From the NCBI GenBank assembly GCA_039815145.1, contig JBCBZW010000016.1, positions 1-64,000 of the forward strand: a stretch of DNA of 64,000 nucleotides. The letters run 5' to 3'. The notes beneath the pieces were generated by a model that saw nothing but the letters and a program-made list of their open reading frames with translations, made no database searches and was not told the DNA's origin. Both the position numbers and the translations under genes were made by a program. This DNA comes from Pseudomonadota bacterium (GTDB taxonomy: Bacteria > Pseudomonadota > Gammaproteobacteria > Steroidobacterales > JBCBZW01). Every line of letters starts with the position of its first letter. Position 1 is the first letter of the stretch. Below, piece by piece: positions 1,531 through 20,176 of the stretch.

Positions 1531-4500
1531 CTAGGACTCGTCGAGGAGGCGTTCGACCTCCTCGTCTGAGAGCGACTCGATTTGCGCGATCAGCGCCGTC
1601 TCCACCGCCTGCGCCACCGCACCCAGCGTCGGAGCAGCGAAGAAACTCTGTAGGGGCAGCTCCACATCGAAGGCATCGCGGATCCGCGCGAGGGCCTGGA
1701 TCGCCGTCAGAGAAGCACCACCGAGATCGAAGAAATCATCGTGCACGCCCACCTGCTCCACGCCGAGCAGCGCGCTCCACACGGCGGCCAGCTGCTGCTC
1801 CACTTCCGTGGCCGGTGCCACGAAGGGCCCTACACTCCCCGCACCTGCCAGCTCCCAGGGCTTGGGTAGGGCCTTGCGGTCCACCTTGCCGGTGGCCGCC
1901 AGGGGCATGGCGTCCAGGGGCACGAGGTAGGCCGGCATCATCTCGTCGGGTAGCGTCGTGGCGAGGTGCTGGCGCAGGGCCTCGTTCGACAGCGCGCCAT
2001 CCGCAGCCGTGACGTAGAGCGCCAGACGCGCCTCGTCGCGCGCGGGCGGCTCGCGATAGCCCACCTCGCTCAGGATCTCGCGCACGCGACGGGTGTCGAT
2101 CTCATCGTCGAGCTCGTGCAACGCTGCCTCGCGGGTCTTGTGGCGAAGGCGCACGTCCCAGCTGTAGGGCAGCGCGTAGTTGTGGTACCCGCGCTCCTTG
2201 CGGTGCACGTAGATACCCGCTTCGTTGATCAGGCAGTTGGTGGAACGCCCCGTGTCGACCGGTCGCTGCCAGGGCGTGTTCGTCTCCAGGTACGCGTACA
2301 CCTCATCGAGGGGCACGTCCCAATAGCGGTAGAAGTCGACGAACTGGATCTGCTCGAAGACCCTGTCATCGTCGAAGGCGGAGACGTCCAGGTGCTGGGC
2401 GACGGCGTCGTCGATGCGATGGTAGACCTTGCGCGCATCAATGATGGCCCGCTCCACCTTGGTCACATCGAACTGGCGATGGCGGAACATCTCATCGAGG
2501 CGTGTCTCGAAGATCTGCCCGCGCGACAGGCCGGTGACGATGTAGCCGATGTTGCGTTGGCGCGCTTCGTTGATGGCGAGGGTGTAGATGGTCTTGAAGC
2601 AGCCGTGGCAGACGTTGCTGTGGCGACGCAGGCTGTCGGCGAAGATCGCGTTCATGTGCGGCGTGCGCGCCATCACCTGATCCACGCCGAGGGCCTTGGC
2701 CACCTGACGGGTGTTCTCGAGCGCCCCTTCCGAGATGAAGCCGTTGTCGAGGGTCAGCGCCAGGATCTTGAGGCCCATGGCGGCGACCTGATAGATCATA
2801 TAGGTGCTGTCCTTGCCCCCGGAGAGGAGCACGATGCAATCGTAATCCCCTTGACGTTGGGCGCGCATCAGGCCTGCGATCTCCTCCAGCGCCTCGCGCG
2901 GCTGGAAGTAGGCCTGGGCCTCCACCGCGTGACGTTCGAAGGTCACGCACATGCTGCACACGTCCGCGTCGTTGAAGACGATCCCGGGGTAGTTCGAGGG
3001 CATGCCGCAGCGCTGACAGAAGCGCACGGGATCTTGCGCCGCGCGGTCGACCACCACCGCCACCGCCTGCCCCACCTGCGGGTGCGCCACGGCAGCCGCT
3101 TCCACCTCGGCGAGCTCGATACGCGCCCCGCGCACCTTTACCTGAGCGTCGCCGCGACCCAGATACTCGAGACGCCCATCCACGGTCCAGCGGCCGAGAT
3201 CGCCCGTGCGATACACGCGCGCGCCGTCGAGAGCAGTCGCCTCGATGAAGCGTTGCGCCGTGAGTTCGGCCCGATTCACGTAACCGTCGGCGACGCCGAC
3301 ACCGCCGATGCAGATCTCACCGAGCAGTCCCGTCGGCACGGGATCGCCGTACTCATCGAGCAGGAAGATCTGGGCGTTGGCGATCGGTCGCCCGATCGGC
3401 ACCGACGCGGCGATGTCCTGCTTCGCGTCGAAGCGGTGGATCATGCACCCGACGGTGGCTTCCGTCGGGCCGTACTCGTTGTAGAGCGCGAGCGTGTCGG
3501 GGAACTGATCGGACACGGCGCGGGCGAGGTCCGTCTTCAGGTCCTCACCGCCAAGGATCAGCGTACGGATTCCCTGCGCCTTGCCGCCGAGCTCTCGAAT
3601 CAGCTCCAAGTGGGCCGGTGTGAGCTTGACCACGTCCACCGCATCGTCCTCGAAGACGCGCAGGACGGGCAGATCGTTGTCTCCCTCATCCAGATACACC
3701 ACCACGGCACCGCCGCACAGGAGCGGCGTGTAGAGGCTGGTGACCGTGAGGTCGACGGCGAGGGACGTGTGCAGGGCGAAGTCCTTCGCACCGCCTTCAC
3801 AGTACTGGCCGCGCGCCCACAGCAGGTAGTTGCTGAGAGCCGCGCGGGAGATCTGCACCCCCTTCGGCGTGCCGGTGGAGCCGGAGGTGTAGATCAGGTA
3901 GGCGAGATCTTGGGGCGCGCCGGCGGGCGTCACCGCCTCAGCGTGCTCGGGGGCAGCCGCTGCGTCGATGACCGGGTACTGCGACGGGAGACGTTCGCTC
4001 ATCGACGGCGCCGCCAGCACCCCGGTGAGGCGCAGGGGTGAGTGCGACAGATCGTCTAGAATCGCGGCGAGGCGTGCCGGTGGATGGCGGATGTCTAGGG
4101 GTAGGTACGCACCCCCCACTCGCAGGCTTGCCAGCATCGCCACCAGCGCCTGGGGCGAGCGCGGCAGGGCCAGCGCCAGTACAGCCCCCGGACCGTGACC
4201 TTGCGCCAGCAGGTAGCTAGCGAGATCGTTCACTCGCTGATCGAGCTCGGCGTAGCTCCAGGTGAGCTCATCGCAACGAAGGGCCGGCGCGGTTGGCGTG
4301 CGGGCCACCTGCGCCCGGAACGCCTCGTCTACGTCGCCGGCCTGCACTAGCTCGGGATGCCGCGTGTCGTTGAAGGCAATCAGCTGCTGCTGGCGCTCGT
4401 TCGCCGTGGACAGGTTACAGCGCCGGATCGGCTGCTCCGACTCGCGGATCAGCGCGTCGATGATGGCGAAGAAGTGCTGCGCGAGCAGATCTTGGGCCGC

Positions 4501-5754
4501 CGGGGAGAACACGCCTTCGTTCGCATCCAGGTCGACGCAGAGCTCGCCCTGGCCATCGAAATCGTGGACTTGAATGCGCAGCTTGTGGGCAGCATCGCCA
4601 GCGCCCGCGTGCACCCAATCGGTGTCCATGTCGAGCCCGGGTGGCGCCTGCATGCGCGCGGTGACGAAATTCAGCAGGACGTCGTAGGCCGTGTTGCTCG
4701 CCGCCGTGCTGGTGCCGGGGAGCCCGTGGCGCAGCGTATCCACCACGGCTTGGCCCACCTTCGCCGCGAGGGACGAGAAGGTCTCGTCGGTCTCGACGTC
4801 CACCTTCAGCGGAAAGACCTCCATGTAGAGGCCCGGCGTGAGCTTGTCGCGCGCCGAGAGGCGGTTGTGCATCGGCACGCCGAGCCCCAGGCGCTTCGCC
4901 CCGCTGATCCGCTGCAGCAGAGCCAGGACCGCGGTGGCGGTCAGACGAAAGAGACTCAGCTCTTCGTTCAGCAGCTGCATGCCCGGCGCCATGGCGAGAT
5001 CGCGCAGGGCGGCCGAGCGATCGGCGCCTAGGGGGAGGCGCAGGCGGCGCGTGCGCGAGTTGCGGCCGATGCCGCCCGTGGTGCCGTAGAAGGGCTGCCG
5101 ATCGGCGGGCTTGGCGAGCAACGCCTCCCAGTAGGCCCGTGCGCTGGCGTAAGACTTGCGATCGCGCGCACTGCGCTCGCGGGCGACATAGTCCGCGTAG
5201 GCAGGCACCTCCGTCTCGCTCGACGCAGCACCCTCGTAGTGGGCGAACAAGCGCTCGCACAACAAGGCGGACGCCCAGGCGTCGCTCACCACGTGGTGCA
5301 GCTTCAAGAACCACACGTGGTGCGTCGGACCGATGCGCAGGAGCGCGCTCTCGTAGAGGCAATGCGACAGGGTGACGGGCACGCGGGCACGCTCGTGCAC
5401 CCAGCGTTCGCAGGCCGCCTCGGCGTCGTCGCGGGAGGCGAAGTTCACCTGGTCGAGGGGCGGGAATTCGCTCGCCGCCAGCACCTGCTGCTGCGGCACG
5501 CTGTCCGCTTCGCGCAGCACCGTGCGCAAGGCGTCGCACTCGGCTACCAGGGCCTCGAACGCCCCCGCGAAACGCTCAGCGTCGAGGACGCCCTGCAGGC
5601 GGAAGGCGAACACCATGTTGTAGAGCGGCGAGGTGGGCTCCACCTGCTGCCCCATCCAGATCAGGAACTGGCTGCGCGTGAGGTTGCTGGCCGCCTCGAT
5701 GTCGTCGATCCATCGACCGGTGAGGGCATCACCGGTCGACGTGTCGGCGGTCAT
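1531..5754 (-). CDS. NRPS module C-A-PCP with a PP-loop ATPase inserted in the adenylation domain; code suggests Asn
   Basis: 1407 aa. The start at 5754 overlaps the upstream carrier-protein stop by 4 bp (ATGA). Order: condensation domain (HHVVSDAW, residues 153-160); adenylation N-terminal part from ~470 (TSGSTGTPKG 623-632, NEYGPTE ~759-765, RTGDLGR ~849-855, A8 RGARIELAEVE ~875-885); insertion ~905-1230; adenylation C-terminal part (A9 ~1262-1280, A10 GKVDRKAL with Lys1290); carrier domain with LGGASL (Ser1348). By alignment from memory to GrsA, the specificity residues read D-L-T-K-I-G-E-V-G-K, the pattern known for asparagine. The insert has CxxC pairs (913/916, 933/936, 1049/1052) and the PP-loop SGGKDST (978-984), resembling WbpG-like N-acetyl-sugar amidotransferases of the adenine nucleotide alpha-hydrolase superfamily. 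Methyltransferases are the usual insert at A8-A9. What this insert does (amidation, sulfur transfer or other adenylation chemistry) is inference only. Confidence 0.93.
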   Translation of the reverse strand: MTADTSTGDALTGRWIDDIEAASNLTRSQFLIWMGQQVEPTSPLYNMVFAFRLQGVLDAERFAGAFEALVAECDALRTVLREADSVPQQQVLAASEFPPLDQVNFASRDDAEAACERWVHERARVPVTLSHCLYESALLRIGPTHHVWFLKLHHVVSDAWASALLCERLFAHYEGAASSETEVPAYADYVARERSARDRKSYASARAYWEALLAKPADRQPFYGTTGGIGRNSRTRRLRLPLGADRSAALRDLAMAPGMQLLNEELSLFRLTATAVLALLQRISGAKRLGLGVPMHNRLSARDKLTPGLYMEVFPLKVDVETDETFSSLAAKVGQAVVDTLRHGLPGTSTAASNTAYDVLLNFVTARMQAPPGLDMDTDWVHAGAGDAAHKLRIQVHDFDGQGELCVDLDANEGVFSPAAQDLLAQHFFAIIDALIRESEQPIRRCNLSTANERQQQLIAFNDTRHPELVQAGDVDEAFRAQVARTPTAPALRCDELTWSYAELDQRVNDLASYLLAQGHGPGAVLALALPRSPQALVAMLASLRVGGAYLPLDIRHPPARLAAILDDLSHSPLRLTGVLAAPSMSERLPSQYPVIDAAAAPEHAEAVTPAGAPQDLAYLIYTSGSTGTPKGVQISRAALSNYLLWARGQYCEGGAKDFALHTSLAVDLTVTSLYTPLLCGGAVVVYLDEGDNDLPVLRVFEDDAVDVVKLTPAHLELIRELGGKAQGIRTLILGGEDLKTDLARAVSDQFPDTLALYNEYGPTEATVGCMIHRFDAKQDIAASVPIGRPIANAQIFLLDEYGDPVPTGLLGEICIGGVGVADGYVNRAELTAQRFIEATALDGARVYRTGDLGRWTVDGRLEYLGRGDAQVKVRGARIELAEVEAAAVAHPQVGQAVAVVVDRAAQDPVRFCQRCGMPSNYPGIVFNDADVCSMCVTFERHAVEAQAYFQPREALEEIAGLMRAQRQGDYDCIVLLSGGKDSTYMIYQVAAMGLKILALTLDNGFISEGALENTRQVAKALGVDQVMARTPHMNAIFADSLRRHSNVCHGCFKTIYTLAINEARQRNIGYIVTGLSRGQIFETRLDEMFRHRQFDVTKVERAIIDARKVYHRIDDAVAQHLDVSAFDDDRVFEQIQFVDFYRYWDVPLDEVYAYLETNTPWQRPVDTGRSTNCLINEAGIYVHRKERGYHNYALPYSWDVRLRHKTREAALHELDDEIDTRRVREILSEVGYREPPARDEARLALYVTAADGALSNEALRQHLATTLPDEMMPAYLVPLDAMPLAATGKVDRKALPKPWELAGAGSVGPFVAPATEVEQQLAAVWSALLGVEQVGVHDDFFDLGGASLTAIQALARIRDAFDVELPLQSFFAAPTLGAVAQAVETALIAQIESLSDEEVERLLDES

Positions 5755-6011
5755 TGCGTCGCGACCCCTTGGCGGGCTTCGAGGTAGGCCACGAGCACAT
5801 CGACGGAGCGGAAGTTCTCGATCGTGATGTCCTGCGGCGGCACGGCGAGGCCGAGTTCGCTGTCGATGAAGGTCACCAGGCGCATGACGCCGAGGGAATC
5901 GAGGTAGCCGTCGACGAGCAGTTCGTCGTCGCCGCCGATGGTCACGTCGTCCTGGTCCGCCAGGAGATCGTCGTTGATGAAGTCGATTACTTGCTGTCGC
6001 ATGGCATTCAC
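5751..6011 (-). CDS. Stand-alone peptidyl carrier protein (PigG/PltL/RedO-like)
   Basis: 86 aa acidic carrier protein. The phosphopantetheine site is in the segment DGYLDSLGVMRL, where the Ser of DSL is the attachment residue. This segment and the later ENFRSVDVLV segment look like the prolyl carrier proteins of prodigiosin and pyoluteorin biosynthesis. It is expected to hold L-proline as a thioester while the neighbouring dehydrogenase oxidises it to pyrrole-2-carboxyl. The annotated start is GTG; an in-frame ATG lies at 6002. The stop overlaps the ATG of the NRPS downstream, and the prolyl-AMP ligase ends 18 nt upstream, so the order ligase-carrier-NRPS matches the flow of substrate. Confidence 0.88.
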   Translation of the reverse strand: MNAMRQQVIDFINDDLLADQDDVTIGGDDELLVDGYLDSLGVMRLVTFIDSELGLAVPPQDITIENFRSVDVLVAYLEARQGVATQ

Positions 6012-6029: not shown

Positions 6030-7625
6030 TCAAGCAGGCTGCGCGTTGTTGTTGTCGTGGTGGGCTTCGGCCGCTAGCCGTAGCGCACGTCGGTCCACCT
6101 TACCCGAGGTGGTGCGGGGAAACTCGTCGACGACGGTCAGGGCCACGGGCACCGCGTAGGCGGGCAGGCGTGCCTTGAGCGCGCGCTGCAGGGGCGCCGC
6201 CTCGAGCTCGCCGTCGGGCGCCTGGCGCGCCGAGGCGTGCACGGCGAGCGTGCCCGTGCCGTCGGTCACCGGGAACACGGCAGCCTCCTCCACGCCCTCG
6301 CACGCGGCGAGGGTGGCCTCGATCTCGTCGAGGTCGACGCGGCAACCGCGAGTCTTGATCAGGCGGTCCGCCCGGCCCAGGAAGTCGAAGTTGCCGTCGT
6401 CGCGTTGGATGACGATGTCACCGGTGCGGTAGAAGCGATCCGGCGAACACGCAGGGTAGCGCGCCACGTCGTGGTACGCCTTCGCCATCAGATCCTCACG
6501 ATTCCAGTAGCCGCGCATCATGGTGGGTGCGCGGATCGCCAATTCGCCGGTCTCACCGGGTGTGACGCCCTGGCCGTCAGCATCGATCACCAGCGCCTCG
6601 ACGTTGTCGTAGGGCGTGCCGATGGGCAGGGACGGCGCATCGTCCGCGGCGATCGGCGGCACGTAGTAGCGCGTGCAACCGTTCACCTCGGTCGGGCCGT
6701 ATACGTTGCAGAAGGAGACGTGGGGCAGGAGTTGCTGCAGGCGGCGCAGGTGCTTGATGGTCATCGGCTCGCCGCCGAAGAGCACGCGCGTCAACGCCGG
6801 CAGGGGGCGCTCCTCGAGGGCCTTGCTCGTCACCAGCTGGATCAGGGCGAAGGGTACCGTGTAGAAGAGGCTCATGGCCTCCTCCTCCAGCAGCTGCGCA
6901 AGGCTCGCCGGCATGCGCGCATGCTCTTCGGGCACCATCACCATGGTGCAGGCCGCTAGGGCGCCGGCGAAGTAGTCGAGGGTGGAGAGATCGAAGTGCA
7001 AGGGAGCGTAGTTGCTGATGCGATCGTCGGGCACCAGCTGGTGCTCGGCCGCCGACACCTCCGCCCAGGCCATGGCACTGCGGTGGGAATGCATGATGCC
7101 CTTCGGCGTGCCCGTCGAGCCGGAGGAGTAGAGGATGTAGCAGGGATCCTGCTCGGTCACGGCCACCGGCGGCGCCTGGTCGCGCCCGCCCGCAGCGATC
7201 TGCGCCCAGGTGAGGCCATCGCCAGCCTCGCCCTCCACGCCGATCACGTGCTCGATCGCCTGCGTCGCCTCGGCGAGCTGCGCGAGCTGGCGCCGGCGAC
7301 GTGGCTCGGTAATCAGGACTCTTAGGCCACCGTCTTCGACGATGAACGCGTGGCGCAGGGCCGGCGCGCCGGGATCGAGGGGCACGTAGGCAGCCCCGGC
7401 CTTCATGATGGCGTGGATGGCCACGGCGCACGCGACGCCCTTGCCGAGCAGCACGCCAACCCGATCGCCGCGACGCACGCCGCGCGCGACCAGCTCGTGG
7501 GCGAGGCCGTTGGCCTGACGCACCAGGGCCTCGTAGGTGAGCGCCTCGCCGCGACAGCGCACGGCGTCGCGCGACGGCTCGCGAGCCGCCGCGTCATCCA
7601 CCAGGCGATGGAGCAGGTAGCGCAC
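6030..7625 (-). CDS. L-prolyl-AMP ligase, carrier-protein loading (PigI/PltF/RedM family)
   Basis: 531 aa free-standing adenylation enzyme with GTG start. Core motifs: YSSGSTGTPKG (A3), FCNVYGPTEVN (A5), YRTGD (A7), GRADRLIKTRGCRVDLDEIE (A8) and TSGKVDRRAL (A10). The stretch HFDLSTLDYFAGALA followed by a hydrophobic FYTVPFALIQL segment is characteristic of the proline-activating ligases of pyrrole pathways rather than of generic fatty-acyl ligases. It should convert L-proline and ATP to prolyl-AMP and load the adjacent carrier protein. It lies 16 nt after the dehydrogenase stop. Substrate assignment rests on family resemblance and on the neighbouring dehydrogenase and carrier; no structure-based code was computed. 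Confidence 0.85.
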   Translation of the reverse strand: MRYLLHRLVDDAAAREPSRDAVRCRGEALTYEALVRQANGLAHELVARGVRRGDRVGVLLGKGVACAVAIHAIMKAGAAYVPLDPGAPALRHAFIVEDGGLRVLITEPRRRRQLAQLAEATQAIEHVIGVEGEAGDGLTWAQIAAGGRDQAPPVAVTEQDPCYILYSSGSTGTPKGIMHSHRSAMAWAEVSAAEHQLVPDDRISNYAPLHFDLSTLDYFAGALAACTMVMVPEEHARMPASLAQLLEEEAMSLFYTVPFALIQLVTSKALEERPLPALTRVLFGGEPMTIKHLRRLQQLLPHVSFCNVYGPTEVNGCTRYYVPPIAADDAPSLPIGTPYDNVEALVIDADGQGVTPGETGELAIRAPTMMRGYWNREDLMAKAYHDVARYPACSPDRFYRTGDIVIQRDDGNFDFLGRADRLIKTRGCRVDLDEIEATLAACEGVEEAAVFPVTDGTGTLAVHASARQAPDGELEAAPLQRALKARLPAYAVPVALTVVDEFPRTTSGKVDRRALRLAAEAHHDNNNAQPA

Positions 7626-7641
7626 CTCGACCCCGCCCCGC

Positions 7642-8799
7642 CTACACGCCGAGCAGGCGAGCGATGACCTGGCGCTGAATGTCCGAGGTGCCGGAGTAGA
7701 TCACGCCACCGGCCGCATCGCGCAGATCCCGCTCGACGCCCGCCTCGGAGAGATAGCCCCTGCCGCCGTGGATACGCATCGCATCGAGGCTGGAGGCGAC
7801 GAAGGCTTCAGAGATGTGCAGCTTGGCGAGCGCCGCCTCCGCCGCCGACGCGCCGCCGTTGTCCATCGCCCAGGCGGCGCGGTAGAGCAGCAGGCGGGAG
7901 GTTTCCAGGCGCAGCTTCATCTCCGCCAGGCGGTTGGAGATGCTCTGGTAGTTGGCGATGGGTTGGCCGAACACCTCGCGCTTGCGGGCGAAGGTCACGC
8001 ACTCGTCGAGCTGGCGCGCCATGGAGCCCACGTGGCTGGCGAAGATGAAACTCCGCTCCCACTCCATCGAGTGCTGGAAGATGCTCTGACCCGCGCCGAT
8101 GGGGCCGAGCATGGCGTCCGCGGGCACACGGCAGTTCTCCAAGGTGAGCTCACCCATGGGCGCCGTGCGCAGGCCCATCTTCTGTTGCGGTTCGCCGCGG
8201 ACGAAGCCTGGCGTGGTCGCTTCCACCAGGAAGGCCGACAGCCCCCACTGGCCAAGGGATGGGTCCGTGGTGGCGAACACCAGCGCTAGGTCGCAGGTGG
8301 GGCCCAGGCCGATGTAGGTCTTGTGGCCGTTGAGCACGTAGTCGTCGCCGTCGCGCTCAGCCACGGTGCGCAGGCCAAAGGCGTTGGAGCCGGAGGCTTC
8401 CTCGGTCATGCCGTGGGCGCCGATGAGCTGGCCGCCGGAGAGGCCCGGCAGGTAGCGTCGCTTCTGCTCGTCGGTGCCGAAGGTCTGGATCGGCTCCTGC
8501 ACGGCCCAGATCTGGCCGTTGAGGCCAAGCGTCAGGCCGTTGTCCGGGCAACCGTAGCCGATCGCCTCGAGCACCATGATGGTGTCGACGGTGCTGAGGC
8601 CACGGCCGCCGTACTCGGTCGGCACGTTGAGGCCGAGGACGCCGAAGTCGGCGCACTTGTTCCAGTCGCCGCGCCAATCGCTTTCGTCCTTGGCGCCGCG
8701 GTGGTCGCGAGCCACGAGGTCCGCGCCGAGCTCTTTGCTGGCGAAGTCACGTGCCGCGTCGATGAGCTCCTGGCTCTGCGGGTCTACGGAGAAGTCCAT
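7642..8799 (-). CDS. Acyl-CoA dehydrogenase-fold flavoprotein, probable L-prolyl-S-PCP dehydrogenase (PigA/PltE/RedW-like)
   Basis: 385 aa, the full length for the acyl-CoA dehydrogenase family. Visible signatures are the central FAD/substrate segment GAHGMTEEASGSNAFGL, the glycine-rich RIHGGRGYLSEAGVERDLRD and the C-terminal YSGTSDIQRQVIARLLG. In prodigiosin- and pyoluteorin-type pathways, enzymes of this family perform the four-electron oxidation of carrier-bound proline to pyrrole-2-carboxyl. The call depends on that context: a prolyl ligase and a carrier protein follow immediately. No electron-transfer partner is encoded beside it, and an ordinary acyl-CoA dehydrogenase cannot be excluded from sequence alone. 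A purine-rich GAGAG stretch precedes the ATG. Confidence 0.85.
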   Translation of the reverse strand: MDFSVDPQSQELIDAARDFASKELGADLVARDHRGAKDESDWRGDWNKCADFGVLGLNVPTEYGGRGLSTVDTIMVLEAIGYGCPDNGLTLGLNGQIWAVQEPIQTFGTDEQKRRYLPGLSGGQLIGAHGMTEEASGSNAFGLRTVAERDGDDYVLNGHKTYIGLGPTCDLALVFATTDPSLGQWGLSAFLVEATTPGFVRGEPQQKMGLRTAPMGELTLENCRVPADAMLGPIGAGQSIFQHSMEWERSFIFASHVGSMARQLDECVTFARKREVFGQPIANYQSISNRLAEMKLRLETSRLLLYRAAWAMDNGGASAAEAALAKLHISEAFVASSLDAMRIHGGRGYLSEAGVERDLRDAAGGVIYSGTSDIQRQVIARLLGV

Positions 8800-8838
8800 C
8801 GTCTCTCGCTCTCAACTCTTCCCTGGATACCGAAGCCG

Positions 8839-9912
8839 TCAGCTCACCACGGCGGCTACCGCCCGGTCTACCTCGGCGAATTGATACGGGTTCAGGGGGT
8901 CGTCACTGATCGACTCGAGGTCGAGCTCGAGGCCGAGGTTGAACTGCTCAGCCCACTCCAGGGCCAGCTCTAGGGCCACGTGGTCCTCGAGGGCGAAGCC
9001 GGTGGAGTCGAAGACCGTGAGGCGATCCTGGTGGGCCTGCATGGTAGCGGCCTGCTTGGTGATCTGCAGCAGATCCGGGCCGATCTGGTCCGCCTCCAAG
9101 CGCTGGCACTCGCCTTCCTTCATCGCCTGGGGCGAGTAGTCGGGGCACACGAGGGCGCGCTGGAGCAGGGTGAGGGGTAGCTCGGTCTTACCGGGGAAGT
9201 CCGCGCCCACGGCGTTCACGTGCAGGCCCGGCTGGCAGTGGCCGTCGTCCACCACCGGGCCGGCGCCGGCGGCCACGGACGTGGCGGTGACGAGCATGTC
9301 CGAGCGCGCCAGGATCTGCGCGCCCGTGGCCGGCGCGATCTCCAGCGGTCGCGGCGACAGGCCCGCGACACGCTGGGCGAAGGAGGCCACGGCGGCCGGG
9401 TCCACGTCGTAGATCAGCACCTGCTCCAGGGGGAAGCAGCGGCTCAAAGCGTGCACGTGACACACGGCTTGCGCGCCGACACCGACGATGCCGAGGACGC
9501 GACTGTCCGGCCGCGCCAGAATCTGGCTCGCCACCGCCGAGGCCGCCGCCGTGCGCACGGCGGTGAGGAAGGTGGCATCGCTGAGGCCGATCAGATGGCC
9601 CGTGTCCGTGTCGTAGGCACCGACCGTGGAGAGGATCGTCGGCAGCTGGAAGGCGCTCGGGTTACGGGGGTGGTAGCCCACCATCTTCACCGTCACCCGA
9701 CGCCCCGCCTCCATCACCGGCATCCACTCGATCAGGCCCACCCGCGGTTGCTCGTAGGTGTAGCCATCGCGCACGCGCACCTCGAAGCGCTGCGGGTCGA
9801 ACTCGCGACAGGTCTCGGCCAAGCGTTCGATCATGCGGTCCATGATCTCGTCCAGTCCGACCTTGGCGACCAGCGCCGCGAGGTCCTGGCTTCTTATTAT
9901 TCTCGTCTTCAT
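8839..9912 (-). CDS. Ornithine cyclodeaminase / mu-crystallin family protein
   Basis: 357 aa from the ATG at 9912; another ATG at 9930 would add six residues, but its GAGG directly abuts the start, whereas GGGA lies six bases before 9912. The Rossmann motif GIVGVGAQAVCHVHAL and the family segments VKMVGYHPRNPSAF and LTAVRTAAASAVA are clear. The founding enzyme turns L-ornithine into L-proline and ammonia with bound NAD. A dedicated proline supply makes sense directly upstream of the prolyl dehydrogenase, ligase and carrier. Other family members act as imine reductases or make unusual amino acids in siderophore clusters (SbnB), so proline formation is an inference from context. The TonB receptor upstream ends 20 nt before this start. 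Confidence 0.82.
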   Translation of the reverse strand: MKTRIIRSQDLAALVAKVGLDEIMDRMIERLAETCREFDPQRFEVRVRDGYTYEQPRVGLIEWMPVMEAGRRVTVKMVGYHPRNPSAFQLPTILSTVGAYDTDTGHLIGLSDATFLTAVRTAAASAVASQILARPDSRVLGIVGVGAQAVCHVHALSRCFPLEQVLIYDVDPAAVASFAQRVAGLSPRPLEIAPATGAQILARSDMLVTATSVAAGAGPVVDDGHCQPGLHVNAVGADFPGKTELPLTLLQRALVCPDYSPQAMKEGECQRLEADQIGPDLLQITKQAATMQAHQDRLTVFDSTGFALEDHVALELALEWAEQFNLGLELDLESISDDPLNPYQFAEVDRAVAAVVS

Positions 9913-9932
9913 GACCTGTCCCGGTTCCATCC

Positions 9933-12287: not shown

Positions 12288-13475
12288 TTAACAGAGGGGA
12301 TGCAGGGACGCGATGAGACGCTCGATTTCCGAGGGCGTATTGAAATAATGCACGGACGCTCGCACCACCGCCGTGAGACCCCGGCGCTCGAACCACACCA
12401 GGTTGCCGGACCCGCTCGCGACGGACACGTTGACCCCGCACTTGCCCAGGCCCGCCTTGATCGCCTCCGCCTCGCGCCCCGCGACGGTGAAGGTGACGAT
12501 GCCGCAGCGCTCATGACCACCGTCCACCACGTCCACCCCAGGGACGGTGCCCAAGGCGCTGCGCAGAGCCTCGGCGAGTTCCTGCACCCGCGAATAGATC
12601 GCGGGCAGGCCGAGGTCACAGGCGTAGCGCATGGCCACGGCGAGGCCGGCCTGGCCGGCGCAGTAGCGCTCCCAGCATTCGAAGCGGCGCGCGTCGTCGC
12701 GCATCGTGAACCGCTCCGGCGAGGTCAGAACGGCGGCATGCTGGTCGAGAAAGGGCGGGTCCAGGCGATCCAGGAACTCGCGCCGTACATAGAGCAGGCC
12801 CGTGCCCCGCGGACCGCGCAGGTACTTCCGCCCGGTGCCGGAGAGCATGTCGCAGCCGAGCGCTTGCACATCCACCGGCATCTGGCCGAGGGACTGGCAG
12901 GCATCGAGGAGGTAGGGCACGTCGTGGGCACGCGCCAGGGCGCCCACCTCAGCCGCCGGGTTCACTAGGCCGTTGCCCGTGGGCACGTGACTCAGGGCGA
13001 TCAGCTTCACCGGTCGGCTGCGATCGCCCAGGCGACGCTCCAACCAACCCAGATCCACCACCCCAGCCTCGTCATCGGCCATGAACTCGACGGCAAAGCC
13101 TCGACGCGCGGCCTGGTGCTGGAGCGCGATCACGTTGGAGCCGTACTCGCTGAGCGGCGCCAGCACCGTATCGCCCGATCCTAAGGCCAGACCGTAGAAG
13201 GCCATGTTCCACCCGCGGGTCGCGTTTTCCACGTAGGCGACCTCCTCCGTCCGGCAGTTCAGCAGCTCCGCGGCGGCCAGGTAGAAGTCTTCGAGCTCGT
13301 GGCGCCGCGTGGCCTCCACCTCGTAGCCACCGCGCCGCTCTTCGTCGCGCAGCCAATCCGTAAGGCGATCCACCACTCGCGCGGGCATCAGCGACGCACC
13401 GGCGTTGTTGAAGTGGCAGCTGTGCTCCAGCCCGCGCGTATCGCGGCGCACGCGCGCCAGGGGGAATTCGCTCAC
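12288..13475 (-). CDS. Class V aminotransferase-fold PLP enzyme (cysteine desulfurase / isopenicillin-N-epimerase superfamily)
   Basis: 395 aa from a GTG start at 13475 that overlaps the upstream transporter stop by 4 bp (GTGA); a longer frame exists but would run deep into that gene. The PLP-site features are LSHVPTGNG (~161-169), DACQ (Asp191, Gln194) and SGTGRKYLRGPRGTG, in which Lys217 should form the Schiff base. The fold covers cysteine desulfurases, selenocysteine lyases, C-S lyases such as EgtE, and epimerases. I do not see the mobile-loop cysteine typical of desulfurases, so a C-S lyase or another beta-elimination activity is as likely. Being coupled to an exporter and close to a PP-loop NRPS, a role in sulfur or amino-acid chemistry is possible but unproved. 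Confidence 0.8.
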   Translation of the reverse strand: MSEFPLARVRRDTRGLEHSCHFNNAGASLMPARVVDRLTDWLRDEERRGGYEVEATRRHELEDFYLAAAELLNCRTEEVAYVENATRGWNMAFYGLALGSGDTVLAPLSEYGSNVIALQHQAARRGFAVEFMADDEAGVVDLGWLERRLGDRSRPVKLIALSHVPTGNGLVNPAAEVGALARAHDVPYLLDACQSLGQMPVDVQALGCDMLSGTGRKYLRGPRGTGLLYVRREFLDRLDPPFLDQHAAVLTSPERFTMRDDARRFECWERYCAGQAGLAVAMRYACDLGLPAIYSRVQELAEALRSALGTVPGVDVVDGGHERCGIVTFTVAGREAEAIKAGLGKCGVNVSVASGSGNLVWFERRGLTAVVRASVHYFNTPSEIERLIASLHPLC

Positions 13476-14377
13476 GCCGTCTTCTCCTGCGAAGGGGTGG
13501 GTGGCGACGCCGGACGCCGCAGAATCACCACGTTGCCGAGGAGGGCCAGTGACACCCCCGCCAGCAGCCAAGGCGTCACCGCGAGGCCCTCGAACAGCGC
13601 CGACAAGATCAGGGCCACGATCGGGAACATGACCACCACGTACCCGGCCCGATGGGCGCCGATGCGGCCGAGCAGGGTGAGGTAGGTGCCGAAGGCGATG
13701 ACTGAGCCGAACACCGCCAGGTACACCAATGAGATCACGTAGGCGGGGGAGGTATCGAAGGTGAATTCATCCCCGCGCAGGAGGGCGAACAGGAGTTGGC
13801 CCAGGGCGCCATAGGCCATACCCCAGGCGTTGCTCTGCACGACCGGCAGCGACTGGCGAGATCCCCACTGGGCCGCCATGTTGCCGAAGGAGGCGATCGT
13901 CGCCCCGAGCAGCGAGTACATGACCCCGAGCATGACGCTGCCGCTGAAACCCGTGGTCGCCAGCTCCGGCCAGAACAGCACCACGACGCCCGCCAGCCCC
14001 AAGACCGCACCCCACCACACCCTGGCCTCGATGTGGGTGCCGAAGATGAGGCGTGCGTTGATGATGTTCATCCACAGAAGCATGGAGAACAGGATGGCAT
14101 TCAGAGCGGAGCTGATATGGAACTGCGCCTGGTAGGCCGCTGCGTAGTTAAGACCGAACAGGAGCAGACCGAGGAGCAGGAACACGCGATGGGCGCGCCA
14201 CCCGAAGGCCATCGGCAGGCCACGCCACCAGCACCAGGCGAAGAGCACGGCCGCGGCCAGCACGTAGCGGTAGACCAGCGACACCGCCGGACTCACCTCA
14301 CCGAGCTGAAACTCGATGGCGAACCAGGTCGACCCCCAGATCAATACCGATGATAGGTAGAGGAAGAGGTCGCTCAC
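13472..14377 (-). CDS. EamA/DMT-family transporter, ten-helix inner-membrane exporter
   Basis: 301 aa with about ten hydrophobic helices in two repeats of the drug/metabolite transporter fold. The N-terminus ([22 protein letters not shown]) shows the usual EamA start, and the family length of ~300 matches. Members export amino acids, metabolites or drugs, or import a few nutrients; the substrate cannot be read from sequence. The GTG start overlaps the uvrA stop by 4 bp, and its own stop overlaps the start of the PLP enzyme by 4 bp, so the three genes are translated together. Because the trio lies directly upstream of an NRPS operon on the same strand, export of the product or a precursor is worth considering. 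Confidence 0.85.
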
Positions 14378-17300
14378 GCGCCTCGCTCGCTCAGGAACTC
14401 ACGCAGGGCCACCCCTGTGAGCGACGCCCGCTTACGGGCCGCCACCGCCTCCGGCGTGCCCCGGGCCACGATGCGCCCGCCCCCTTCCCCGCCCTCGGGG
14501 CCGAGGTCGATCACCCAGTCCGCCTCGGCGATCACGTCCAGGTTGTGCTCGATCACGATCACCGTGTTGCCCGCATCCACCAGGCGGTGGAGCACGCGGA
14601 TCAGCTTCTCCACATCGGCCATGTGCAGGCCCACGGTAGGCTCGTCGAGCACGTAGAGCGTGCGCGGCAGGGTGCGACGTGAGCGCCCGCCCGGCGCGGC
14701 GCGGGCGAGCTCGAGCTGCTCGATGCTCGGCGCCTTCGCCAGCTCCGTCACCAGCTTGATCCGCTGTGCTTCGCCGCCGCTCAGGGTGGGGCTGCGTTGG
14801 CCGAGGGTGAGGTAACCCAAGCCCACGTCCTGCAGCAGGGTCAGGGTCTTGAACAGCTTCGGATGGGACTCGAAGAAGGGCGCCGCCTCATCGATGCTCA
14901 TCGCCAACACGTCGGCGATACTGCGCTCACGGTAGCGCACGGCGAGGGTCTCGCTGTTGAAGCGCGCGCCTTCGCAGCGCTCACAGCGCACTTCCACGTC
15001 CGGCAGGAAGTTCATCTCCACCTTGCGCACGCCCTGCCCTTCACAGGCCTCGCAGCGCCCGCCGCGCGTGTTGAAGGAGAAGCGGCTCGGCTGATAGCCG
15101 CGGATGCGTGCCTCGGCCGTGTCCGCATAGAGGCGACGGATGTAGTCGAAGATGCCGACGTAGGTGGCCGGGCAGGACCGTGGGGTCTTGCCGATCGGTG
15201 TCTGATCCACCTCCAGCACGCGATCGACGTGCTCCGTCCCGTCCAGAGACTCGCAACCGAAAAGCGTCGGCGCCTTACGCTTGCGACGCCCCGCCGCAGC
15301 GATGAGATTCGTCAGGTTACGGTAGAGCACGCCACGGACGAGGCTGCTCTTGCCGCTGCCGCTCACGCCGCTCACGCACACCAGGCGCTGGAGCGGCAGG
15401 TCCACGCTCACATCGCGCAGGTTGTTCGTGTGCGCGCCGGCGATGCTGAGGAACTGCTCCGCCTTGGGTCGCCGCGCCATGAGCGGATGCACCAGGGGGT
15501 TGGCAAGCAGCTGCCCGGTGACCGAGCGCTTGGCCTTCGCCACCTGCTTCGGCGTGCCCTGGGCCACGAGCTCACCGCCCCGGGAGCCAGCGCCGGGCCC
15601 TAAGTCGATCACATGGTCGGCAGCGCGGATCGTGTCCTCATCGTGCTCCACCACCACCACCGTGTTGCCCTTGCGCTGGAGTTGCTGGAGCGTGTCGAGG
15701 AGCATGGCGTTGTCGCGCGCGTGCAGGCCGATGGTGGGTTCGTCCAGGATGTAGCACACGCCGCGCAGGTTCGAGCCGAGCTGGGACGCCAGGCGCAGGC
15801 GCTGCGCCTCGCCACCGCTCAAGGTGGGCGCGGGGCGATCGAGGGCCAGGTAGCCGAGGCCCACCTGCTGCATGAAGTCGAGGCGCGCACGCAGCTCGGT
15901 GAGCACGTCGCGGGCGATATCCTCGTCGCGGCCGCTCAGCTTCAGGCGATTGAAGAAGGTGCTCGCCGCACCGACCGAGAGCCCCGCGAGGTCGGCGATC
16001 GAATGGTCGCGGAAGCGCACACTGAGCGCTTCGCGGCGCAGGCGTTGACCATCGCAGCTGGGGCACACGTCGGGTTCCCCGTCGTCGGCCGCCGCTTCCG
16101 CCACCCAACTGACCTCTTCACCGCTGGCCTCCTCGTCGAAGTCGCGCAGCACCTGACCGGTGCCGAAGCAGCCCTCGCACCAGCCATGGCGCGAGTTGTA
16201 GGAGAACAGGCGCGGGTCGAGTTCCGGGAAGCTCGTGCCGCAGCCGGGGCATGCGCGCCGGGTGGAGTAGAGTGCCTCGTCGGCTCGGGTCGCAGCCGTG
16301 GCCTTTTTTCTGCCTTTTTTGGGCGCGGCATCAGCCACGGGCGCGATGCGGGCGAGACCGCCGCCGTGCTCCATCGCCTCGCGCAAGGCGTCGCGCAGGG
16401 TCTCACGATTACCGGCCTGCACCTTGAGCTGGCGCACGGGCAGATCGATGTCGTGCTCCTGGAAGCGCTTCAGGCGCGGCCAATCGTCGGTGGGCGTCAG
16501 CACGCCGTCGACGCGCAGCTGCTCGTAACCCTTACCCGACGCCCACTTGGCCAGGTCCGTGTAGTAGCCCTTGCGCGCCACCACCAGCGGGGCAAGCACG
16601 CTCACCTCCTGGCTGCGGTAGCGCGACAGCACCTGGCCGAGCACCGCGTCGAGGGTTTGCGGCTCGATCGCAAGGCCACAATCCGGGCAGTGGGCGGTGC
16701 CGAGCTTCACGAACAGCAGGCGCAGGAAGTGGTAGAGCTCGGTCATGGTGGCGACCGTGCTCTTGAAGCCGCCGCGGCTCGTGCGCTGCTCGATCGCCAC
16801 GGTGGGCGGGATGCCGTGGATAGCGTCCACGTCCGGCCGCGTGGAGGGCTGCACGAATTGGCGTGCGTAGGCGTTCAAGGACTCGAGGTAGCGACGCTGC
16901 CCCTCGCCGAACAGGATATCGAAGGCGACCGTGCTCTTGCCGCTGCCGCTGACGCCGGTGATCACTGTGAATCGATCGCGCGGCACTTCCACGTTCACAC
17001 CCTTGAGATTGTGCTCACGGGCGTTGCGGATACCGATCGCCTGGGCGCGCTTGGCACGCGCCGGTGCTTTCCTGGCGGCGGCAGGTGAGCGCTTGGCTTT
17101 GGCGGCGGCGCGCAGGGCCGCGTCCGCGTTGCGCAGAGACGTGCCTGTGTGTGAGTCACGCGCCTTGCGTACGGCCGCCGGGGTACCGGCGAACACGACC
17201 TCGCCGCCAGCGCTGCCGCCCTCGGGCCCCAGGTCGACCAACCAATCGGCCGCGTTGATCACATCGAGATTGTGTTCGATCACGACCAGCGACCCGCCGT

Positions 17301-20028
17301 CCTCCACGAGGGCAGCGAAGGCGCGCAACAGCACGCTCACGTCTTCGAAGTGCAGGCCCGTGGTGGGCTCATCGAAGAGATACAGGGTGGTGAGGCCATC
17401 ACCCACTCGCTTGCGTGAGCGGCGGCGCTTGGCCGCCTCGGCGAGGTGGCCCGCCAACTTGAGCCGTTGCGCTTCACCGCCGCTCAAGGTGGGTACCGGT
17501 TGGCCCAGGCGCACGTAGCCGAGACCGACGTCGACCAGCGGCGCCAGGGCGCGCTGCACGTCGGGTTGGGCGGCGAACACGGTGAGCGCGTCTTCGGCGG
17601 TGAGCTCGAGCACGTCAGCGATGTTCCAGGAGGCATCGTCGTCGTCGTCCTCCCGTGACCAGCGTACCTCGAGCACATCCTCGCGGTAGCGCTTGCCGTC
17701 GCAGGTGGCGCAGCGCAGGTAGACGTCGCTCAGGAACTGCATCTCCACGTGCTCGAAGCCGTTGCCGCCGCACTCGGGGCAACGACCGTCGCCAGCGTTG
17801 AAGCTGAAGGTACCTGCCGTGTACTCCCGGGCCTGGGCCAGGGGCGTGGCGGCGAAGAGCTTGCGGATGCCGTCGAGGGCGCCGACGTAGCTGGCCGGGT
17901 TGGAGCGGGTGGTCTTGCCGATGGGCGACTGGTCCACCAGCACCACATCACGCAGCTGCTGCGCGCCCTCGATCGCCTCGTGCGCGCCGGGCAGCTCCGT
18001 GGCGCGACCGAAGTGCTTGGACAGCGCGCGGTACAGCACGTCGTGGATGAGGGTCGACTTGCCCGACCCACTCACACCCGTCACGCACACCAAGCGGCCG
18101 AGCGGCAGGCTCACGTCGACGCCGCGCAGGTTGTGCTCGCCCGCGCCCACGATGCGCAGGTCCTCGAGATCCTCGCGACGCAGCCCTGGCGCGTAGGGCG
18201 TGGTGTCCGGTGGCTCGCCGCGCAGGTGCGGGGCCGTGGCGCTGCGGGTCGAGCGCAGGAGCTGGGTCGGCGTGCCCTCGAAGACGACGGTGCCACCGCG
18301 CTCCCCAGGGCCGGGACCGATGTCGATGATGCGATCGGCAGCCCGGATTACGTCGGGATCGTGCTCCACCACGAGCAAGGTGTTGCCGGCATCGCGCAGG
18401 CGGTGCAGCACCTGGACCAGGCGATCGACGTCGCGCGCGTGCAGGCCGATGCTCGGCTCGTCGAGCACGAACAAAGCGTTGACCAGAGACGTACCTAATG
18501 CCGTCGTCAGGTTGATCCGCTGCACTTCGCCGCCGCTCAGGGTGCGCGACTGGCGATCGAGGCTGAGGTAGCCGAGCCCCACGTCGCCTAAGAACTTCAG
18601 GCGCGAGCGGATCTCCTCGTAGAGCAGCTCCATGGCGTCGTCGGCCTCGCCCGCCATGGCCTCGAAGAAGGCGCCGAGGTCGTCGAGGCTGAGCTGCATG
18701 AGGTCGTGCACGCAGAGCCCCGGCAGCTGCTCGCGCTGCTCGCGCGGCAGGAGAGGCAGATCGAGCTCGTCGCTATCGACGGGTTGGAAGCGCTCGGCGG
18801 GCGGCAGCACCGCATCGGCCTGCTCGCGCGTCCCCAGGCGCCAGGCCAGGGCCGTGCGCTTGAGGCGCGCGCCGCCGCAGCTCTGGCAGGTGTCGTAGCT
18901 GCGGTAGCGCGAGAGCATCACGCGCACGTGCATGCGGTAGGCGCGGCCCTCGAGCCAATCGAAGAAGCGGCGCACGCCGTACCAGTGACCGCCGTCCCAG
19001 TCGCCGTCGCCCTCGATCACCCACTCGCGCTCGGCATCCGTAAGATCGCGCCAGGGGGTGCGCATGTTGAGGCCCACGCGCTTGGCGTGCTTCGCGAGGT
19101 CGCGTTGGCACTCGCGGTAGCTCTTGCTGGTCCAGGGCTTGATCGCGCCCTCGGCCAGGGAGAGCGACTCGTTGGGAATCACCAGCGTGTAGTCGATGCC
19201 CATCGTGCGGCCGAAGCCGCGGCAGCTGTCGCAGGCGCCGATCGGCGAGTTGAAGGAGAAGGTGTTGGGGATGGGCGTCTCGTAGTCGAGATCGCAGTGG
19301 GCGCAGTGGAACTGGTCCGAGTAGTGCGCGGTGTCCGCCGCCTCGCCGTCGTCGTCCAGGAGGCGCACGAAGGCGCGGCGGCTGCCCCGACGCAGGGCCG
19401 CTTCCAGGGCCTCCACCAGGCGACCGCGGTTGTCGGCCCGCAGGCGAAGGCGATCCTGGATCACCTCCAGACGGTCGTCGCCGACGGCCGCGTAGCGCGT
19501 GTAGCCCTGGGCCTTGAGCAGGGCCTCCACCTCTTCCTGGGTGAAGTTCTCCGGCACACGCACGTGGAATCCGACGATCGCCCGCGCGTCGGCATAGGTC
19601 TCGATCAACTCGCCCGCCGCCTGCACGGGATCGTCCTTGCGCACGGGCCGGGCGCAGCCCTCGCAGTAGAGCTTCGCCATGCGCGCGAACAGGAGCTTCA
19701 GATGATCGTTGAGCTCGGTCATCGTGCCCACGGTGGAGCGCGAGGTCCGCACGGGGTTGGTCTGATCGATGGCGATCGCCGGCGGGATGCCCTCGATGCG
19801 CTCGGCGCGCGGCTTGTCCATGCGATCGAGGAACTGGCGCGCGTAGGGCGAGAAGGTCTCGACGTAGCGCCGTTGCCCTTCGGAGTACACCGTATCGAAG
19901 GCGAGCGAAGACTTGCCCGAGCCGCTCACGCCGGTGACGACGATGAGCTGGCCCAGGGGCAGATCGATGTCGACACCCTTCAGATTGTTCTGACGGGCGC
20001 CGCGAACGAGGATGGCGTCTTGGGTCAT
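14374..20028 (-). CDS. uvrA: Double-length UvrA: two complete UvrA units in one polypeptide
   Basis: 1884 aa from the ATG at 20028 ([18 protein letters not shown]), about twice the usual ~940. The longer open frame to 20442 is antisense to the neighbouring gene and has no UvrA character. Four Walker A motifs GVSGSGKS are present (the first at residues 33-40) and four LSGGE signatures, each followed by a Walker B such as [10 protein letters not shown] or [11 protein letters not shown]. Both halves keep their zinc-type CxxC pairs (for example CAHC...CDSC, CPEC...CATC, CPGC...CEGC, CEAC...CERC). An Ala/Lys/Arg-rich linker near residue 980 joins the halves. UvrA works as a dimer in nucleotide excision repair, so this looks like a covalently linked dimer. 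UvrA paralogues such as DrrC also give self-resistance to DNA-binding antibiotics. I cannot see whether another uvrA exists in the genome. Confidence 0.93.
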
Positions 20029-20176
20029 GGCGCTCGCGAGGGCCGCACGGAGGACAGGCGACGATAGGGGGGCGGTCCGCAGCCGGTCAAGGCTTGACAC
20101 GGGGCGGTCAGGCGCCGCGTTTTCCGCGATAATCCCGCCTTTCTCAGCGCAGTCAGCAAAGCAGGAGTTCGGACCC
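20029..20176. promoter_or_regulatory. Divergent control region between uvrA and the beta-oxidation gene
   Basis: 148 bp between two divergent starts. It contains a perfect dyad GTCAA-GGC-TTGAC at 20086-20098, which overlaps a TTGACA hexamer (20094-20099), and a GATAAT hexamer at 20128-20133. The two hexamers are 28 bp apart, too far for one sigma-70 promoter, so they may belong to different promoters. No SOS (LexA) box of the Escherichia type is visible. Confidence 0.35.

What the first reader, a model, noticed from the sequence alone, without database searches (positions are those of the whole stretch)
1531..5754. NRPS adenylation domain interrupted by a PP-loop (amidotransferase-like) ATPase
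Seen: between A8 (GARIELAEVE) and A9/A10 (GKVDRKAL) lies a ~320-residue block with an SGGKDST PP-loop and three CxxC pairs, in frame and without any frameshift. Known: inserts at this position in A domains are usually methyltransferases; AANH/PP-loop enzymes activate carbonyls as acyl-adenylates for amide or thioamide formation (e.g. CtaC in closthioamide synthesis). Inference: the module could adenylate the Asn side chain or the carrier-bound backbone carbonyl and swap O for N or S while the residue is on the carrier.
Basis: partly seen in the sequence, partly recalled or inferred. Interest (0 to 1): 0.85.

Follow-up and report, generated by a model that had tools for sequence, protein, structure and literature searches.

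The report
Asparagine-to-nitrile domain inside a peptide synthetase
The peptide-making enzyme really does carry a second ATP-using enzyme inside its asparagine-loading domain, but the same arrangement is already known from the antibiotics albicidin and cystobactamid, where it turns loaded asparagine into a nitrile or an isomer; what is new here is a wide set of relatives and an invariant cysteine triad that suggests an iron-sulfur cluster.

Summary
Window 1531-5754 (minus strand, 1407 aa) is one intact C-A-T NRPS module, and a ~327-residue PP-loop domain (2044-3027) sits between A8 and A10. The novelty claim is not correct. The insert is 52% identical over 326 residues to the domain in Xanthomonas albilineans AlbIV, and AlbIV's domain is published as 69% identical to the AMDH domain of cystobactamid CysH. 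CysH AMDH was shown to dehydrate carrier-bound Asn to beta-cyanoalanine (-18 Da), or to isomerise it to isoasparagine. I found 83 such domains. All keep SGGKDS and seven cysteines, and all 79 A domains that could be read (two of them only in part) carry the Asn code. The best reading is a cis-acting (C-A-AMDH-T) AMDH module that adenylates the Asn side-chain amide and eliminates AMP to give a nitrile, probably after a pyrrole-type starter. New here: the fold is N-acetyl-sugar amidotransferase-like (Z 20.3), with an added all-or-none CxxC...C triad like the [4Fe-4S] site of LarE. That triad would explain the unexplained brown colour of CysH. Verdict: a new member of a known kind, with one testable cofactor prediction.

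The parts
1531..5754 (-). NRPS module C-A[PP-loop insert]-T, 1407 aa
   Evidence: conserved in congener L006
4384..5685 (-). Condensation domain (residues 24-457)
   Evidence: Pfam PF00668
3040..4320 (-). Adenylation core subdomain to A8 (residues 479-905), code DLTKIGEVG = Asn
2044..3027 (-). Inserted AMDH-type PP-loop domain (residues 910-1237)
2947..3018 (-). Tetracysteine C913, C916, C933, C936, the zinc motif of N-acetyl sugar amidotransferases
   Evidence: invariant in 83/83 AMDH domains and 28/28 NASATs; zinc in LpNASAT (PMC10607449)
2806..2823 (-). PP-loop SGGKDS (residues 978-983)
   Evidence: invariant in 83/83
2599..2610 (-). C1049xxC1052, first two cysteines of the CxxC...C triad
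   Evidence: invariant in 83/83; aligned with CxxC of [4Fe-4S] LarE 8cnz
2233..2235 (-). C1174, third cysteine of the triad
   Evidence: invariant in 83/83; triad all-or-none in 28 stand-alone relatives
1855..2043 (-). A-domain C-terminal subdomain with A10 GKVDRKAL (residues 1238-1300)
   Evidence: (sub-cut-off Pfam match)
1603..1797 (-). Thiolation (carrier) domain (residues 1320-1384)
   Evidence: Pfam PF00550
2..1516 (-). Next NRPS gene, cut by the contig end; the congener's copy is C-A-T-TE (L007:96-4604)
5751..6011 (-). Stand-alone carrier protein, 86 aa (by position and tblastn relatives; no Pfam or NCBIfam assignment)
6030..7625 (-). Stand-alone A protein, code DLLYLGVGC (proline-like, by analogy)
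7642..8799 (-). Acyl-CoA dehydrogenase; best NCBIfam models are L-prolyl-PCP dehydrogenase RedW (388 bits) and PigA (387 bits), both below cut-off
8839..9930 (-). Ornithine cyclodeaminase family protein

Best explanation
The insert is an AMDH-type domain, homologous to those in AlbIV and CysH, here acting in cis in an assembly-line C-A-AMDH-T module. The A domain activates L-Asn and loads it on the carrier (inferred from the code). The PP-loop of the insert then uses a second ATP to adenylate the side-chain carboxamide oxygen of Asn-S-carrier. Loss of AMP and a proton gives beta-cyanoalanyl-S-carrier (inferred from CysH chemistry and PP-loop enzymology). An isomerised isoasparaginyl product is the second possibility. 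The four N-terminal cysteines bind structural zinc (inferred from LpNASAT). The CxxC...C triad most likely binds a [4Fe-4S] cluster near the PP-loop (inferred). The residue is probably joined to a pyrrole-2-carbonyl or dehydroprolyl starter made by the neighbouring A, carrier and dehydrogenase genes, then passed to a C-A-T-TE module.
For: Homology: the insert is 52% identical, 69% similar over 326 aa to the domain of the 941-aa ORF in X. albilineans. That ORF follows an NRPS end, a methyltransferase and a thioesterase gene. Its A-[AANH, SGGKD]-T layout and Asn substrate are those published for Alb04/AlbIV. CysH AMDH: Asn loading then -18 Da, abolished by deleting the domain; AlbIV and CysH domains are 69% identical. 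Substrate: Asn code DLTK(I/V)GEV(G/A) in 77 of 79 A domains; the other two segments are incomplete but agree where they can be read. Catalytic residues: SGGKDS and 7 Cys invariant in 83/83. Fold: AF2 pLDDT 92.5; best matches NASAT 8wex Z 20.3 over 299 aa, then [4Fe-4S] NcsA, TtuA and LarE, and nitrile synthetase ArtA at Z 11.0. The whole A+insert model matches the interrupted A domain 5wmm best. No CysJ-like hydroxylase among the cluster genes scanned, which in cystobactamid favours the nitrile.
Against: AlbIV branches apart from the other 82 domains on a weakly rooted tree with long branches, so the reaction may differ in this clade. The product of this cluster is unknown. CysH itself was not in hand and was compared only through the published figure. 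Isoasparagine formation cannot be told from nitrile formation by sequence. No coordinates were available to measure whether the three cysteines meet beside the PP-loop.
Confidence: 0.77

Rival explanations
1. Same family, but the product is isoasparagine: the domain swaps which carbonyl is the thioester and which the amide, for example through an activated amide or a cyclic imide, and the nitrile is only a side product.
For: CysH AMDH is needed for isoasparagine linkers, most efficiently after CysJ hydroxylation.
Against: No hydroxylase among the scanned cluster genes; without CysJ the nitrile rises and isomerisation drops.
Confidence: 0.18
2. One reading: the domain swaps O for S or N on Asn (thioamide or amidine), the triad's cluster handing over sulfide as in LarE or TtuA.
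For: Closest folds are amidine-forming NASAT and [4Fe-4S] sulfur transferases; the CxxC...C triad is shared with LarE.
Against: The characterised homologue makes a nitrile or isoasparagine. The cluster's SufS-like protein (12288-13571) scores far below the desulfurase cut-offs and has no cysteine where I place the catalytic one; relatives were found only in the congener.
Confidence: 0.05
3. The insert is a dead relic that only holds the A domain together.
For: None found.
Against: PP-loop and seven cysteines invariant in 83/83; dN/dS 0.065, well below the C domain and both A subdomains.
Confidence: 0.02

Closest known systems
AlbIV/Alb04 of albicidin biosynthesis (Xanthomonas albilineans)
   Same: Asn A domain with the homologous SGGKD domain inserted before the A C-terminal subdomain, then T; 52% identity in the insert
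   Different: Stand-alone A-AMDH-T acting in trans; here C-A-AMDH-T within an assembly line; different surrounding genes
CysH AMDH domain of cystobactamid biosynthesis (PMC7966384)
   Same: AMDH domain in an Asn A domain; shown to make beta-cyanoalanine and isoasparagine on the carrier
   Different: Works with hydroxylase CysJ, methyltransferase CysQ and shuttle CysB; none of these was seen among the scanned cluster genes
N-acetyl sugar amidotransferases (NASAT/WbpG, TIGR03573; PDB 8wex)
   Same: Same full-length fold, zinc tetracysteine and PP-loop
   Different: Free-standing sugar enzymes; 27 of 28 lack the CxxC...C triad
[4Fe-4S] PP-loop thiolases LarE, TtuA, NcsA
   Same: PP-loop core and CxxC...C triad pattern
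   Different: Lack the NASAT-type full-length match (Z 11-12 against 20); insert sulfur
Interrupted A domains with methyltransferase (TioS AMA4, 5wmm)
   Same: Insertion at A8/A9; best structural match of the A+insert model
   Different: The insert is a methyltransferase, unrelated in sequence and chemistry

Membership tests
AMDH domain (AlbIV/CysH) | Homology to the AlbIV/CysH inserted domain | tested here: met
   52% identity over 326 aa to the X. albilineans domain; CysH reached only through the published 69% AlbIV-CysH identity
AMDH domain (AlbIV/CysH) | Insertion in an Asn-specific A domain between A8 and the C-terminal subdomain | tested here: met
   code DLTKIGEVG; A8 GARIELAEVE before, A10 GKVDRKAL after
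AMDH domain (AlbIV/CysH) | Conserved SGGKD ATP-binding motif | tested here: met
   residues 978-983; 83/83
AMDH domain (AlbIV/CysH) | Converts carrier-bound Asn to beta-cyanoalanine or isoasparagine | not testable with these tools
   needs intact-protein mass spectrometry
N-acetyl sugar amidotransferase (TIGR03573) | Score above the curated cut-off of 203.2 bits | tested here: not met
   131 bits; related family, not a member
N-acetyl sugar amidotransferase (TIGR03573) | Zinc tetracysteine CxxC...CxxC and PP-loop | tested here: met
[4Fe-4S] PP-loop thiolases | CxxC...C triad | tested here: met
   C1049, C1052, C1174 invariant in 83/83; first two aligned with LarE by profile, third by motif only
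[4Fe-4S] PP-loop thiolases | Bound [4Fe-4S] cluster | not testable with these tools
   needs spectroscopy; CysH reported dark brown
[4Fe-4S] PP-loop thiolases | Sulfur transfer to substrate | not testable with these tools
   homologous CysH domain gives -18 Da instead

The most novel reading that the evidence does not exclude
AMDH domains are iron-sulfur PP-loop enzymes: a NASAT-type fold that has a [4Fe-4S] cluster on an invariant C1049xxC1052...C1174 triad, used on the adenylated Asn side chain. This would explain the brown colour of CysH and add a cofactor type to domains embedded in NRPSs.
Probability: 0.5. Interest if true: 0.6.

Novelty: new member of a known kind. Interest (0 to 1): 0.4.

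Why it matters
AMDH chemistry makes nitriles and isoasparagine on the carrier, both part of potent gyrase-inhibiting antibiotics, and its mechanism is an open question in the literature. This module gives a cis-acting example outside the albicidin/cystobactamid pathways. The 83-domain alignment and model give concrete residues to mutate, and a cofactor that can be checked in one purification.

Tried and rejected
Methyltransferase insert: rejected, no such Pfam match and NASAT-type fold. Membership in TIGR03573 itself: below cut-off. Recent capture of a stand-alone NASAT: rejected, since the stand-alone relatives share only about 20% identity with the insert while embedded domains share 50-63%. 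Sulfur delivery by the SufS-like neighbour: weak, its NCBIfam score is far below the desulfurase cut-offs and no cysteine lies where the catalytic one is expected. Profile comparison with two LarE proteins to align the third cysteine gave only a weak local match, up to the CxxC. A 400-genome search of the phylum found no other strong match; relatives of the same order did. Open-access literature searches found no report of iron-sulfur in AMDH; subscription papers are not covered.

Full report
What is there. The open reading frame 1531-5754 on the minus strand encodes 1407 residues with Condensation, AMP-binding, a QueC-like PP-loop region, AMP-binding_C and carrier domains in one frame; the AMP-binding_C match is just under its Pfam cut-off (21.7 against 24.5 bits). 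The block between A8 (GARIELAEVE) and A10 (GKVDRKAL) is residues 910-1237. It carries SGGKDS at 978-983, four cysteines (913, 916, 933, 936), a further C1049xxC1052, and C1174.

The window starts at the end of contig C16, so the downstream NRPS gene (2-1516) is cut. A congener genome holds the whole cluster (L006/L007): UvrA-like, EamA, class V aminotransferase-like, TonB receptor, ornithine cyclodeaminase, acyl-CoA dehydrogenase, stand-alone A, a small stand-alone carrier, the C-A[insert]-T module, and C-A-T-TE. The insert is 92% identical between the two, and its dN/dS of 0.065 is lower than that of the C domain and both A subdomains (0.11-0.19); only the 65-residue carrier domain is lower, at 0.049.

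What it is related to. A scan of 84,980 genomes with a four-sequence alignment gave 115 relatives, 80 kept. Where flanks and motifs could be read, the domain sits inside an A domain, in Acidobacteriota, Actinomycetota, Chloroflexota, Bacteroidota, Gemmatimonadota, Nitrospirota, Rhodothermota, Verrucomicrobiota and Pseudomonadota. Among these is X. albilineans L075. Its ORF of 941 aa (6333-9158) is A-[QueC-like]-T and follows the end of a large NRPS, a methyltransferase and a 167-aa thioesterase-family gene. This fits AlbIV by layout and organism; the name is my assignment. The window insert is 52% identical and 69% similar to it over 326 residues.

What is already known. A review states that Alb04 activates Asn and has a 342-residue extension with an SGGKD motif of the AANH-like superfamily (PMC8949500). 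Gross et al. 2021 (PMC7966384) named the CysH domain AMDH and reported 69% identity to AlbIV. They showed carrier-bound Asn losing 18 Da only when the domain is present, and isoasparagine linkers disappearing when it is deleted. They also noted numerous homologues, all in Asn-type A domains. The finding is therefore not a new architecture.

Substrate. The specificity codes of A domains carrying the insert are DLTK(I/V)GEV(G/A) in 77 of 79; the other two segments are incomplete but agree where they can be read. The reference fragment of GrsA-PheA used for this alignment was written from memory, and the codes were checked only by its core motifs. DLTK-GEVG is the asparagine code by established knowledge.

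Fold and cysteines. AlphaFold2 gave mean pLDDT 92.5 for the insert. The best solved structure is the Legionella N-acetyl sugar amidotransferase 8wex, Z 20.3 over 299 residues. A clear step below come the [4Fe-4S] thiolases NcsA 12.3, TtuA 12.2 and LarE 11.5, other PP-loop enzymes at a similar level, and nitrile synthetase ArtA 11.0. Profile comparison with three stand-alone NASATs gives probability 99.7 over columns 1-316. The tetracysteine matches the zinc site of LpNASAT (PMC10607449) and is present in 28 of 28 NASATs and 83 of 83 AMDH domains. The triad C1049, C1052, C1174 is present in 83 of 83 AMDH domains; of 28 NASATs, one has all three cysteines and 27 have none. Such an all-or-none pattern fits three ligands of one site. 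In Thermotoga LarE the same CxxC...C pattern binds a [4Fe-4S] cluster (PMC9283937), and the methanococcal LarE aligns its CxxC with ours. Gross et al. saw dark brown CysH and looked for CxxCxxxC, not this pattern. The cluster is an inference; no coordinates could be measured.

Model of A plus insert. The 843-residue model has mean pLDDT 88.0 but pTM 0.64, so the placement of the insert against the A domain is uncertain. Its best match is 5wmm, an A domain interrupted by a methyltransferase.

Context. A dehydrogenase similar to prolyl-carrier dehydrogenases (RedW and PigA models, both below cut-off) lies within the fetched flanks of 56 loci, window and congener included; a stand-alone A protein near it was found in 34, most with codes of the form D..Y.(G/A)V.C. 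The proline reading of that code is analogy to pyrrole-forming systems. So the likely starter is pyrrole-2-carbonyl or dehydroprolyl, followed by the modified Asn.

Mechanism. Shown by others on homologues: Asn loading, loss of water that needs the domain, isoasparagine that needs the domain. Inferred here: side-chain adenylation by the PP-loop, AMP elimination to nitrile, zinc in the tetracysteine, [4Fe-4S] in the triad, and nitrile rather than isoasparagine because no CysJ-like hydroxylase was seen among the scanned cluster genes.

Limits. The tree is a quick one with long outgroup branches; support for the 83 embedded domains as one side of a branch is only 67, and AlbIV falls outside the other 82. 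Function is therefore carried over by homology, invariant residues and shared substrate code, not by close orthology.

Noticed in passing
L008:625-6211, L057, L043, L060, L048, L019, L026 (and, cut by the contig end, L044): In the module after the AMDH module, the A domain is split between genes at A8/A9: an ORF ending after the A core, then a separate methyltransferase ORF (about 265 aa in most), then an ORF starting with the A C-terminal subdomain and T. The methyltransferase sits where interrupted A domains carry it in cis. It recurs in Pseudomonadota, Chloroflexota and Rhodothermota.
   Followed up: partly
window 14374-20442; L006:1078-6840: UvrA-like protein of about 2000 aa (two UvrA units in tandem), beside the cluster in both species of the genus; could be housekeeping or self-resistance. 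No relative was found in the flanks of the other loci.
   Followed up: no
window 12288-13571: SufS/EgtE-like PLP protein with no cysteine at the expected catalytic position, relatives found only in the congener.
   Followed up: partly
L013, L014, L015, L018, L020, L021: Mesorhizobium, Bradyrhizobium and Microvirga carry stand-alone A-AMDH-T proteins laid out like AlbIV/CysH but in a separate clade.
   Followed up: no
L128: A stand-alone NASAT-family protein that has the complete CxxC...C triad, unlike 27 others; a possible free-standing relative with an iron-sulfur site.
   Followed up: no
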